Assembly: GCA_031291055.1 (NCBI GenBank)
Contig: JARLJU010000090.1
Span: 1 to 64,000, forward strand
Source of the DNA: Rudaea sp.
GTDB taxonomy: Bacteria > Pseudomonadota > Gammaproteobacteria > Xanthomonadales > Rhodanobacteraceae
Reading direction: 5' to 3'
DNA length: 64,000 nt
Under the pieces are notes generated by a model. The model did not search any database. It was not told where the DNA came from and worked only from the letters and a program-made list of their open reading frames with translations. Below are positions 1 to 6,875 of this stretch, piece by piece. The position numbers and the translations under genes are program-made. Positions within the stretch are counted from its first letter, which is position 1. Each line of letters begins with the position of its first letter.

Positions 1-594
1 GGCACGCACAACGCCAGCCGGCAGCAGGAAGTCTGCGACACGCTGGCGCAAACCGCGCGCGACATCTCGGCCCAGACGCAGGCGCACGCCAGCAACACCG
101 TCGCCGAGATCGACCGGCTCGTGCAAGCCGCTTCGGCGGCCCCAAAGCTGCTCGAAAGCGTCTCCGTCCGCCTGGAAACCGCGACAAGCGGCATGTCGGA
201 AGCGTGGCACAACGCGCTATCCCGGCACGAACGCGTCAGCGAAAAACTGGCGGGCGACAACCAGCACGCCCTGGCGGCGGCCGCGGCCACGTTCGAGCAG
301 CACTCGGCGTCGCTGGTGCGCACCGTGGGCCAGTCGCATGCGGACCTGCAAGCGGAACTGGCTGCCCGGGACCAGCAGCGGCTGGCGGCCTGGACCGATA
401 CGCTCGGCACGATGGCCGCAACGCTGCGCCAGGAGTGGGAGCAGGCGGGCACGCACAACGCCAGCCGGCAGCAGGAAGTCTGCGACACGCTGGCGCAAAC
501 CGCGCGCGACATCTCGGCCCAGACGCAGGCGCACGCCAGCAACACCATCGCCGAGATCGCCCGGCTCGTACAAGCCGCTTCGGAAGCCCCCAAG
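1..594 (+). repeat. Two near-identical ~147-bp in-frame repeats (1-147 and 448-594), offset 447 bp (149 codons)
   Basis: GTHNASRQQEVCDTLAQTARDISAQTQAHASNT(V/I)AEI encoded twice with almost identical DNA. Confidence 0.95.
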
Positions 595-1131
595 GCGGCC
601 GCCGACGTCATTGGCGAACTGCGCCAGAAGCTATCGGACAGCATGGTCCGCGACAACGCGATGCTGGAGGAGCGCGGCCGCTTGCTGCAAACGCTGGAAA
701 CCCTGCTCGATGCCGTGAACCATGCCTCCACCGAGCAGCGCACGGCCGTCGACGCGCTGGTGGGCACGACGGCGGATCTGCTGGATCGTGTTGGCACCCG
801 CTTCACCGACAAGGTCGAGGCTGAAGCCGGAAAGCTGGAGGCTGTCGCCGCGCAGGTCACCGGCAGCGCTGTCGAGGTGGCAAGCCTGGGCGAAGCCTTC
901 GGCATGGCGGTGCAGCTGTTCGGCGAGTCGAACGACAAGCTGGTGGCTCACCTGCAGCGCATCGAAGCCGCGCTGGACAAGTCCGTCGCGCGTAGCGACG
1001 AACAGCTTGCCTATTACGTCGCACAGGCTAGGGAAGTCATCGACCTGAGCATGCTGTCGCAGAAGCAGATCGTCGAAAACCTGCAACATCTCGCAGGACA
1101 GCGGGCGCCCGCCAGCGCCGAAGCGGCATGA
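1..1131 (+). CDS. DUF802-type long coiled-coil protein, C-terminal part (5' end outside the window)
   Basis: Open frame from base 1 to the stop at 1131; Ala/Gln/Glu-rich coiled coil; gene context with an OmpA/MotB-like and a DUF2894-like protein. Confidence 0.7.
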   Translation, partial: GTHNASRQQEVCDTLAQTARDISAQTQAHASNTVAEIDRLVQAASAAPKLLESVSVRLETATSGMSEAWHNALSRHERVSEKLAGDNQHALAAAAATFEQHSASLVRTVGQSHADLQAELAARDQQRLAAWTDTLGTMAATLRQEWEQAGTHNASRQQEVCDTLAQTARDISAQTQAHASNTIAEIARLVQAASEAPKAAADVIGELRQKLSDSMVRDNAMLEERGRLLQTLETLLDAVNHASTEQRTAVDALVGTTADLLDRVGTRFTDKVEAEAGKLEAVAAQVTGSAVEVASLGEAFGMAVQLFGESNDKLVAHLQRIEAALDKSVARSDEQLAYYVAQAREVIDLSMLSQKQIVENLQHLAGQRAPASAEAA

Positions 1132-1775
1132 GCGAGGAGATCGACGCCGGCGTGGAGCCGACCGTGCCAATCTGGGCCGTCTTCGGCGACCTGATGTCGG
1201 TACTGCTGGGCGCCTTTGTGCTGATCCTGGTGAGCGTCATCGGCGTGCAACTGGAACTCTCGACCAGGCTGGAGGAGGAGGTCAAGCAGCGGCAGGTGGA
1301 GAAGCATCGCCGCGAGGCCCTTGAGCAAGCGCTGGCTGGCCCGCTGGCTGCGGGCCGGGTGACGCTGGTCAACGGGCGCATCGGCATCAAGGGCAGCGTG
1401 TTGTTTGCCCTCAACTCCGATCAATTGCAGCCCGAAGGCCGGGAGGTGTTGAAGAGCCTGGCCGCGCCGCTGTCCGCTTACCTCCAGGCCCGCGAGGAGA
1501 TCCTGATGGTGAGCGGATTCACCGACGACCGCCAGGTGCGCGAGGCCAACCGCCGCTTTGCCGACAACTGGGAGCTGTCGGCCCAGCGCGCGTTGACGGT
1601 AACCCGCGCGTTGATCGATGAAGGCGTCCCGCCCTCCTCCGTGTTTGCGGCCGCCTTCGGCGCCGAGCAGCCCGTGACCTCGAACGCCAACGACGAGGGA
1701 CGGGCCAAGAACCGGCGCGTGGAAATCGCGCCAATCCCAAGGCCGTCCAACGAAACGGGGAAGCCGCGTGATTAG
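1128..1775 (+). CDS. MotB/OmpA-family protein: one N-terminal TM helix with an Asp (FGDLMSVLLGAF) plus a C-terminal OmpA peptidoglycan-binding domain
   Basis: ATGA overlap with the upstream gene; NWELSAQRALTVTRALIDEGV...NRRVEI OmpA-like motif. Confidence 0.85.
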   Translation: MSEEIDAGVEPTVPIWAVFGDLMSVLLGAFVLILVSVIGVQLELSTRLEEEVKQRQVEKHRREALEQALAGPLAAGRVTLVNGRIGIKGSVLFALNSDQLQPEGREVLKSLAAPLSAYLQAREEILMVSGFTDDRQVREANRRFADNWELSAQRALTVTRALIDEGVPPSSVFAAAFGAEQPVTSNANDEGRAKNRRVEIAPIPRPSNETGKPRD

Positions 1776-2457
1776 TGGCGAAATAGGTGACGAGATTGGT
1801 GGCAACATCCGCGACGCCCTTGCCACGCTCGACGCTTGGCGCGCACGTGGTGCCGATCGCCTGAATCCTGTCCGCTTTCGATTCATCGAGGCGCTGGCCC
1901 GGCGCGCGGCCGCCCACAGCGGCAATGCGCGACACATCCTGGACGCCAGGCTGGCCAAACTACTCGAGGCCTATGCCGGTGATCTTGAAAGTGCCGGTTG
2001 CAAAGACAGCAAGAACGGCAATGTCGGCGGCACAGCATTGCCAGGCGCTCCTCCTCGCGGGCCGCTTGCCGGACTGGTCAACTACATCGCCATCCGGACG
2101 CCGTCGGATCGCGGCGTCCCCTCAGCGATCGCAGGCGTGCCCCGGCGTGCATCCTTACCGGACATGGAGGTGCTCGACTACTTCCGGGAAACCTGGTCCA
2201 GGGTCAGCACCGATCGTCGGTTGCGGCAGTCGCTGGAGCAAGTGCCCGATAACGCCGGCCCGCTCAATTCGAGCCGCCTCGTGCATCGCTCGCTTTCCCT
2301 GATGCGCGAACTATCGCCTGAATATCTCCACCAGTTCTTGTCGTACGTCGACGCCTTGTCGTGGATGGAGCAGATGAACGGCGGCAGTGTCACGGCGGGT
2401 AAAGACGCGCCTCGCGCAGGGAGCACCAAGCCGAGCGCTCGCGGCAGGCCACGCTAG
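1768..2457 (+). CDS. DUF2894-like protein
   Basis: Overlaps the end of the OmpA-like gene; ARGADRLNPVRFRFIEALARRA motif. Confidence 0.7.
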   Translation: MISGEIGDEIGGNIRDALATLDAWRARGADRLNPVRFRFIEALARRAAAHSGNARHILDARLAKLLEAYAGDLESAGCKDSKNGNVGGTALPGAPPRGPLAGLVNYIAIRTPSDRGVPSAIAGVPRRASLPDMEVLDYFRETWSRVSTDRRLRQSLEQVPDNAGPLNSSRLVHRSLSLMRELSPEYLHQFLSYVDALSWMEQMNGGSVTAGKDAPRAGSTKPSARGRPR

Positions 2458-3441: not shown

Positions 3442-4053
3442 TCACCGCAGCAATGTCGGCTCCCGTTGCGTGAGGACGCGGTCGATCAGCCCCCATTCCA
3501 GCGCTTGTTCCGATGTCATGTAGCGGTCTCTGTCAAGGGTGCGCTCGACCTCCTCGTAGGTGCGCCCGCAATGTTCGGCATAGAGCCGGGTGACACGCTG
3601 CTTGGTCCGCTGCATCTCCTCGGCATGAATGAGGAAATCCGACGCCTGCCCCTGAAAGCCGCCCAGCGGCTGATGGACGTGCAGACTCGCATTGGGGAGC
3701 GCCGCCCTTTCGCCGGGCTCACCCGCCATCAGCAGAAACGAGCCCATGGAACGCGCGGTTCCCATGCACAGCGTATGCACCGGCGCTTTGATGTATCGCA
3801 TGGTGTCGTACATGGCAAGGCCGCTTGTAATGACCCCGCCGGGCGAATTGATGTAGAGATGGATGGGCTTCGCTGGATTCTCGGCTTCCAGGAACAGGAG
3901 CTGTGCACAGACCAATGCGGATACCGCATCGTTGACCTCACCGTTCAGGAAGACAATCCGCTCGCGCAGAAGCCGCGAGTAGATGTCGAAGGACCGTTCT
4001 CCCCGGCTGGATTGCTCAACGACCGTAGGGACGAGTTGCATCATTTCGCGCAT
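3442..4053 (-). CDS. ClpP-family serine protease (paralogue)
   Basis: [19 protein letters not shown] (Ser), HVHQPLGG (His) and [20 protein letters not shown] motifs. Confidence 0.93.
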
Positions 4054-4098
4054 TGGCGAACTCCTGTATTCCAGATTTGCGGTTGTTGGCGCGAGGCG

Positions 4099-4458
4099 TC
4101 AGGCGGCGCGCATGAGGTAGGGCCAGCCGTCGTTCGCGGCCGTCTGCGCGTGGCGCTCTAGCCGAGCGTCTTCCAGCACGTGGATGATGCTAAGCACGGT
4201 GCCGCCAACGGCATTGGGCCTGAGCCGAAACGTCACTGTGCTTTCGAGGAAAGGCGGCGCTTCGTCCCGCATCCTGTAGCGAATTTCCTCGTCCGGCGTC
4301 GAAGAAACCGGCTCGGCATCCGCCAATGCTCCCTGGGGCAGCCATTTCTCGCGAAACGCGGGGATGCTGATTGCCCGCCAGACTTTCTCAGGCGGCGCGT
4401 CGAGTTCGTATTCGAGCACCAGGTCCGTCATCTGCCCTTCGGTTTGCATGTCGTTCAT
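4099..4458 (-). CDS. SRPBCC/AHSA1-like domain protein
   Basis: LEYELDAPPEKVWRAISIPAFREKWLP motif; 4-bp overlap with the upstream ArsR gene. Confidence 0.85.
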   Translation of the reverse strand: MNDMQTEGQMTDLVLEYELDAPPEKVWRAISIPAFREKWLPQGALADAEPVSSTPDEEIRYRMRDEAPPFLESTVTFRLRPNAVGGTVLSIIHVLEDARLERHAQTAANDGWPYLMRAA

Positions 4459-4769
4459 TGGTCCATGTCCTTCAGCAAAGCCTTCAACGTGTCGACGCGC
4501 GCCGGCCAGTAGGCGCGATACTTCGCCAGCCAGCCGGCGATGAGCGCCAAGCCCTCCGGGTTGACCTCGTAATTCACGAAACGGCCTTGCCGCTCTTCAC
4601 GCACCAGCCTTGCGTTGCGCAGAACCGAAAGGTGCTGGGACATGGCCGACTGGCTGATCTCCATGCCTTGCCGCAAGGCACTTGCGTTCATGCTGCCAGC
4701 CGCCAGCTTCTCGAAGATCGTGCGGCGGGTCGGGTCGGCCAGCGCCTTGAAGATGTCGTTTTCAATCAT
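4455..4769 (-). CDS. ArsR-family HTH transcriptional regulator
   Basis: IFKALADPTRRTIFEKLAAGSMNASALRQGMEISQSAMSQHLSVLRNARLV winged-helix signature. Confidence 0.92.
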   Translation of the reverse strand: MIENDIFKALADPTRRTIFEKLAAGSMNASALRQGMEISQSAMSQHLSVLRNARLVREERQGRFVNYEVNPEGLALIAGWLAKYRAYWPARVDTLKALLKDMDQ

Positions 4770-6799: not shown

Positions 6800-6875
6800 T
6801 GGAGCGGGAAACGAGGCTCGAACTCGCGACCTCAACCTTGGAAAGGTTGCGCTCTGCCGACTGAGCGACTCCCGC
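6800..6875 (-). tRNA. tRNA-Gly(UCC)
   Basis: Reverse complement gcgggagtcgctcagtcggcagagcgcaacctttccaaggttgaggtcgcgagttcgagcctcgtttcccgctcca; cloverleaf and encoded CCA. Confidence 0.95.

What the first reader, a model, noticed from the sequence alone, without database searches (positions are those of the whole stretch)
1..2457. DUF802 / MotB-like / DUF2894 module resembling a tailed proton-driven motor
The 1128-1775 product has a MotB-like layout: a single TM with a membrane Asp (PTVPIWAVFGDLMSVLLGAFVLILV) and a C-terminal OmpA peptidoglycan-binding domain. It is coupled by ATGA to a long coiled-coil DUF802 protein and to a DUF2894 protein. MotAB and ZorAB pair a MotB-type stator with a MotA-type partner; ZorA also carries a long tail. 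The analogy is inference because the N-terminus of the DUF802 protein is outside this window.
Basis: partly seen in the sequence, partly recalled or inferred. Interest (0 to 1): 0.65.

Follow-up and report, generated by a model that had tools for sequence, protein, structure and literature searches.

The report
Truncated type III Zorya anti-phage operon
The left edge of this contig carries the last part of a type III Zorya anti-phage operon, a known defence system built around a flagellar-motor-like ion-driven motor, cut off by an assembly break inside the repetitive tail of its motor protein; the system is known, but the way its tail length varies between species is less so.

Summary
Window 1-2457 encodes the C-terminal 376 aa of ZorA3 (PADLOC E 7e-194), complete ZorB3 (3e-119) and the complete DUF2894 partner (4e-85). 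The window begins at base 1 of its contig, inside zorA next to a 447-bp-spaced near-identical repeat, so the MotA-like half and the DUF3348 gene are missing from the assembly.

Relatives supply them: DUF3348-zorA-zorB-DUF2894 is present in all 76 related loci whose contig reaches far enough. Their ZorA N-termini carry a MotA/ExbB/TolQ core whose profile finds solved type I ZorA (8VVN, E 9e-5). The ZorB membrane Asp (D21) is invariant in 31 of 31. The cassette is patchy and its neighbours are not conserved, as expected of defence genes.

Two points go beyond filing. The ZorA3 rod varies strongly (490-1117 aa after the TM motif) between a conserved core and a conserved tip, through near-identical repeats whose lengths keep helical phase (3.636 residues/turn, p about 0.001). 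DUF3348 and DUF2894 show no detectable nuclease, so the type III effector is unexplained. Defence by this copy is untested.

The parts
1..1131 (+). zorA (type III), C-terminal 376 aa only: part of the coiled-coil rod with DUF802 and the conserved tip; the 5' end is lost at the contig start
   Evidence: PADLOC PDLC00650 ZorA3 E 7.2e-194, 3 stretches; DUF802 PF05650 E 2e-15; contig C307 begins at window base 1
1..147 (+). copy 1 of a direct repeat in the zorA rod (149-aa period)
   Evidence: 96% identical to 448-594, spacing 447 nt
448..594 (+). copy 2 of the zorA rod repeat
   Evidence: the same 447-nt offset is seen in Cupriavidus basilensis L036
604..1128 (+). conserved C-terminal tip of ZorA (last ~175 aa)
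   Evidence: 83 of 84 ZorA3 relatives match, median 80% identity, whatever the rod length
1128..1775 (+). zorB (type III), complete, 215 aa: single TM helix with invariant D21, OmpA/MotB peptidoglycan-binding domain
   Evidence: PADLOC PDLC00651 ZorB3 E 3.2e-119; OmpA PF00691 E 3e-21; D21 invariant in 31 aligned sequences; best solved relative MotB 3KHN E 5.9e-19
1188..1190 (+). codon of ZorB Asp21, the presumed ion-carrying membrane aspartate
   Evidence: invariant in 31 of 31; type II ZorB uses D21 and type I D24 (PMC11890865)
1768..2457 (+). DUF2894 gene, complete, 229 aa (called ZorG in the papers, ZorF3 in PADLOC-DB)
   Evidence: Pfam PF11445 E 3.5e-65; PADLOC PDLC00652 E 3.6e-85; all-helical AF2 model, mean pLDDT 71.6

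Best explanation
This is the 3' part of a Zorya type III anti-phage operon (DUF3348 - zorA - zorB - DUF2894), truncated by an assembly break in the repetitive zorA rod. By homology, five ZorA and two ZorB subunits form an inner-membrane ion-driven motor: ZorB anchors to peptidoglycan through its OmpA domain, ZorB D21 carries ions past a ring of Ser/Thr in ZorA, and envelope disturbance by an infecting phage lets ions flow and turns or strains the ZorA rod that projects into the cytoplasm. I infer that the conserved rod tip passes this signal to the two helical partner proteins DUF3348 and DUF2894, which stand where ZorC/ZorD or ZorE stand in types I and II. Neither has a recognisable nuclease, so they more likely act as adaptors or gates, either recruiting a host effector or letting ion flow itself do the damage. 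Shown here: gene content, domains, motor core (in relatives), conserved Asp, cassette behaviour, rod-length variation. Taken from the literature on types I and II: 5:2 assembly, peptidoglycan binding, need for ion flow and for the rod. Inferred: the roles of the two partners.
For: PADLOC ZorA3/ZorB3/DUF2894 matches. All four PADLOC type III components match in the closest relative, C. basilensis L036, 86% identical over 1-2460. DUF3348 was found in all 76 loci whose upstream DNA allowed it, and the ATGA zorA-zorB overlap is near universal. The ZorA core profile hits type I ZorA 8VVN at E 9.4e-5, with aligned LGxxGT and AFxTSxxGVAxS motifs. ZorB D21 is invariant and MotB-like peptidoglycan-binding residues are conserved. 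DUF3348 is in 71 of 198 family genomes; in the genomes checked for all three markers, DUF3348, ZorB3 and DUF2894 occur together, except that DUF3348 is lost in the broken window assembly. Homology to C. basilensis stops at the DUF2894 stop codon, and no flanking gene family is shared by more than 9 of 80 loci. A cloned type III system from Stenotrophomonas nitritireducens protected E. coli from phage (PMC8565338).
Against: The window's own copy lacks the motor core and DUF3348, so whether it is intact is not shown. G000 has 5.4% estimated contamination, so the contig might come from another organism. No other defence genes were seen beside it in the part of the window looked at. The functional steps rest on types I and II; for type III the papers held give only the 2021 plaque and liquid-culture assays. 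Weak AF2 confidence for DUF2894 (pTM 0.41) limits what its lack of fold matches means.
Confidence: 0.9

Rival explanations
1. A housekeeping motor (a MotAB/TolQR-like envelope machine) of Burkholderiales that was classed as defence by resemblance; its phage protection in E. coli would be a side effect of overexpression.
For: It is very common in some genera (71 of 198 family genomes carry DUF3348, concentrated in particular genera), sits on chromosomes and megaplasmids without obvious defence-gene company, and encodes no recognised nuclease.
Against: Patchy presence within genus and family, and unrelated neighbours in most relatives. Published protection against several phages. The ZorA core matches ZorA and not MotA, ExbB or TolQ among solved structures.
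Confidence: 0.12
2. A flagellar or gliding stator variant (MotAB/AglRS) rather than a defence motor.
For: The ZorB PG-binding domain is closest to MotB among solved structures (3KHN).
Against: NCBIfam MotB equivalogs are far below their cut-offs while PRK09040 is met; no flagellar genes recur among the neighbour clusters shown; ZorA3 and ZorB3 models score far higher.
Confidence: 0.02
3. A decayed remnant: only the 3' half of the operon remains in this genome and the start of the window is a real deletion end.
For: No ZorA N-terminus or DUF3348 found elsewhere in the 371-contig assembly.
Against: The break lies exactly at a contig start beside a near-identical repeat, and three relatives also have contigs ending inside zorA (L051, L073, L094). 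All three frames present are open.
Confidence: 0.08

Closest known systems
Zorya type III (DUF3348-ZorA-ZorB-DUF2894; Payne et al. 2021, PMC8565338)
   Same: Same gene order in relatives, the same PADLOC models, and the same hosts (Burkholderiales and Xanthomonadales).
   Different: The copy in the window is cut by the contig end; its protection has not been tested.
Zorya types I and II (ZorABCD, ZorABE; structures 8VVN, 8VVI; PMC11890865)
   Same: MotA/ExbB/TolQ core, membrane Asp in ZorB, OmpA-type PG-binding domain, long cytoplasmic ZorA rod.
   Different: Partners are DUF3348 and DUF2894 instead of ZorC/ZorD (helicase) or ZorE (HNH nickase). ZorA3 rod length varies about twofold, whereas component sizes are reported as well conserved within types I and II.
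MotAB / PomAB flagellar stators
   Same: ZorB layout and PG-binding domain (3KHN E 5.9e-19).
   Different: No match of the ZorA3 core to MotA above threshold in solved structures; no flagellar context seen.

Membership tests
Zorya type III | ZorA with MotA/ExbB/TolQ core and long tail | tested here: inconclusive
   Tail present in the window and matches ZorA3 at 7e-194; the core is absent from the assembly but present in the 86%-identical relative L036 and others
Zorya type III | ZorB with TM aspartate and PG-binding domain | tested here: met
   ZorB3 E 3.2e-119, OmpA E 3e-21, D21 invariant
Zorya type III | DUF2894 protein in the operon | tested here: met
   PF11445 E 3.5e-65, PADLOC E 3.6e-85
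Zorya type III | DUF3348 protein in the operon | tested here: inconclusive
   Lost with the contig end; present upstream of zorA in 76 of 76 testable relatives, including the closest one
Zorya type III | Protects against phage | not testable with these tools
   Shown for the Stenotrophomonas nitritireducens system (PMC8565338), not for this copy
Zorya types I/II | ZorC/ZorD or ZorE next to ZorAB | tested here: not met
   Neighbours are DUF2894 and, in relatives, DUF3348; type I and II ZorA/ZorB models score far lower
Flagellar MotAB | Above curated MotB equivalog cut-offs | tested here: not met
   Best MotB-type models reach 87-92 bits against cut-offs of 259-283
5:2 rotary motor | ZorA5:ZorB2 assembly | not testable with these tools
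   No multimer prediction available

The most novel reading that the evidence does not exclude
Type III Zorya is a motor whose rod works as an adjustable spacer: between a fixed motor core and a fixed tip, near-identical in-phase blocks (87 aa, about 24 helical turns, is commonest) are gained and lost so that rod length differs even between close species. It ends not in a nuclease but in two helical adaptor proteins of unknown fold, so it defends by a route different from types I and II.
Probability: 0.3. Interest if true: 0.6.

Novelty: new member of a known kind. Interest (0 to 1): 0.33.

Why it matters
As a member of a named system it is ordinary. What is useful is that it makes two open questions testable. 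First, how type III stops phage without a detectable nuclease. Second, whether rod length matters: the natural series of rods (586, 673, 760, 847, 934 aa after the TM motif, in steps of 87) with the same core and tip is a ready-made set for measuring the effect of rod length on defence. It also warns that the repeats in zorA break short-read assemblies, so tools that need all genes on one contig will under-count type III systems.

Tried and rejected
Looked for the missing N-terminus and DUF3348 on other contigs: not found. Suspected that DUF3348 and DUF2894 share an N-terminal helical motif: hhalign gives probability 1.9% and P 0.026 over 30 columns, so not claimed. Searched predicted structures of DUF3348 and DUF2894 against the PDB for a nuclease or other known fold: nothing below E 0.19 and 2.0 respectively. 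Looked for tRNA-linked insertion: only 2 of 80 relatives have a tRNA within 1.5 kb of the cassette, so no general tRNA-linked island. Looked for rod-length differences within species: none in 3 P. caribensis, 2 C. metallidurans, 2 P. largidicola or the Caballeronia SBC1/SBC2 pair. A first BLASTP self-comparison for repeats reported only the trivial self-hit and was replaced by a diagonal scan. A test of whether contig C307 belongs to its genome's genus gave no clear answer. The Hu et al. 2025 Nature paper on Zorya is not held, so remarks on ZorA tail length there could not be checked; the novelty of the rod-length observation is therefore uncertain.

Full report
WHAT IS THERE. Window 1-2457 holds three co-directional frames: 1-1131 (open at the left edge, 376 aa), 1128-1775 (215 aa) and 1768-2457 (229 aa). 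The first overlaps the second by ATGA; the second overlaps the third by 8 bases with a GTG start. Pfam gives DUF802, OmpA and DUF2894. PADLOC gives ZorA3 (E 7.2e-194), ZorB3 (3.2e-119) and the DUF2894 component of Zorya type III (3.6e-85). NCBIfam places ZorB in PRK09040, above cut-off, and well below the MotB equivalog cut-offs.

WHY IT IS CUT. The window is G000:C307 from base 1, so the missing 5' part is missing from the assembly. A profile of full-length ZorA3 finds only the C307 fragment plus one weak hit elsewhere, and DUF3348 is not found. The first 147 bases of the contig are 96% identical to 448-594. Three relatives also have contigs that end inside zorA (L051, L073, L094). A repeat-induced assembly break is the simplest account. 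G000 has 5.4% estimated contamination, and the match to Cupriavidus basilensis (86% DNA identity) is closer than to the one genus relative that has the cassette (72%, G014/L012), so transfer of the cassette and a misbinned contig cannot be told apart here; one test was inconclusive.

THE WHOLE CASSETTE IN RELATIVES. Eighty relatives with up to 10 kb on each side were fetched. DUF3348 was found in the 76 loci whose contig reaches that far; the zorA-zorB overlap is 4 bases in nearly all. In C. basilensis L036 all four products hit the PADLOC type III models, and Pfam gives DUF3348, DUF802, OmpA and DUF2894. An annotated example is L123, PPGUF2_76040-76080.

THE MOTOR. In 17 aligned relatives the N-terminus holds hydrophobic segments, including the nearly invariant GLLVLLGMLGT..GM and FGTS.AGVA.SA.LGL blocks typical of the MotA/ExbB/TolQ core. 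A profile of this alignment, searched against all solved structures, has one match better than 0.01: ZorA type I, 8VVN chain C, E 9.4e-5, over these two blocks. ZorB D21 is invariant in 31 of 31, the same number as the critical Asp of type II ZorB. Its periplasmic domain aligns with MotB structures over the GFTDD and NWELS motifs. The 5:2 stoichiometry is literature for types I and II (PMC11890865) and untested here.

THE ROD. Measured from the LLGMLGT motif to the stop, ZorA3 spans 490 to 1117 aa in 84 loci. The last 175 aa are conserved (83 of 84 matched, median 80% identity), and so is the N-terminal core, so it is the middle that varies. The commonest length is 585-586, and 44 of 75 loci lie within 2 aa of 586 plus a multiple of 87 (23 of these are the base length itself). 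In 54 loci a 45-aa stretch recurs at 70% or more identity at an offset of 51, 58, 62, 69, 80, 87, 102, 103, 113, 116, 131, 149, 174 or 233 residues. Thirteen of these fourteen are close to whole numbers of turns at 3.636 residues per turn (103 is the exception); a jittered null reaches the observed value once in 5000, and about 0.1% of the time when multiples are dropped or lengths drawn uniformly. Hydrophobic periodicity of the rods peaks independently at 3.655. On a tree built without the rod, 74 loci need at least 39 changes of length class, against a mean of 49 for shuffled labels, so length evolves fast, although it did not differ within the species checked. In-phase duplication may reflect selection for an unbroken coiled coil, or simply crossing-over between older in-phase repeats; the data do not separate these. 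For types I and II the component size is reported as well conserved within each family (PMC11890865).

THE PARTNERS. AF2 models of DUF3348 (mean pLDDT 79.3, pTM 0.74) and DUF2894 (71.6, 0.41) are all-helical, with no PDB fold match better than E 0.19 and 2.0 and no other convincing Pfam family even at loose thresholds. Their invariant residues show no evident nuclease-like cluster. Types I and II have ZorD and the ZorE nickase; the published model expects a nuclease-like complex in all subtypes. Type III therefore either recruits a host nuclease or works differently. That is inference from absence, and weak for DUF2894. Note the naming clash: the papers call DUF3348 ZorF and DUF2894 ZorG, PADLOC-DB 2.0.0 the reverse.

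MOBILITY. ZorB3 at full strength is in 2 of 16 genomes of the genus (own included) and 7 of 20 other family genomes sampled; DUF3348 is in 71 of 198 family genomes, 14 of 26 genera; DUF2894 is present in all 12 ZorB3-positive and none of 5 negative genomes tested. No flanking gene cluster occurs in more than 9 of 80 loci, and homology to C. basilensis ends at window 2460. The cassette also sits on megaplasmids. This fits a four-gene unit that moves between sites, as defence systems do, while being common enough in some genera that a housekeeping role cannot be excluded from distribution alone.

VERDICT. A new, incomplete copy of a known system. The two leads worth keeping are the length-quantised, phase-keeping rod and the lack of an identifiable effector.

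Noticed in passing
window 6800-6875 (-): tRNA-Gly(TCC), the only tRNA in the window, 4.3 kb from the Zorya cassette; in Dyella L115 two tRNA-Gly genes and a tRNA-Cys lie 0.2-0.6 kb upstream of its cassette, and in L036 a tRNA-Thr is predicted beside it, but other relatives show no tRNA nearby.
   Followed up: yes
L046, L100, L111, L104, L119 (zorA): Very long ZorA rods (up to 1302 aa frames) built of near-identical blocks of 51, 80 or 131 aa, a natural rod-length series.
   Followed up: partly
window 1768-2454 (DUF2894 residues 38-67) and L069:7160-7894 (DUF3348 residues 13-42): DUF2894 and DUF3348 share a weak N-terminal similarity; not significant here (hhalign P 0.026), but a possible shared docking helix.
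   Followed up: partly
window 3442-4769 (-): ClpP-like protease, SRPBCC-domain protein and ArsR-type regulator cluster that is also found together on rhizobial plasmids at about 77% DNA identity.
   Followed up: no
window 1768-2457 (PADLOC-DB 2.0.0 models PDLC00652-00658): ZorF/ZorG names are swapped relative to the publications (DUF2894 is ZorF3 and DUF3348 is ZorG3 in the database).
   Followed up: yes
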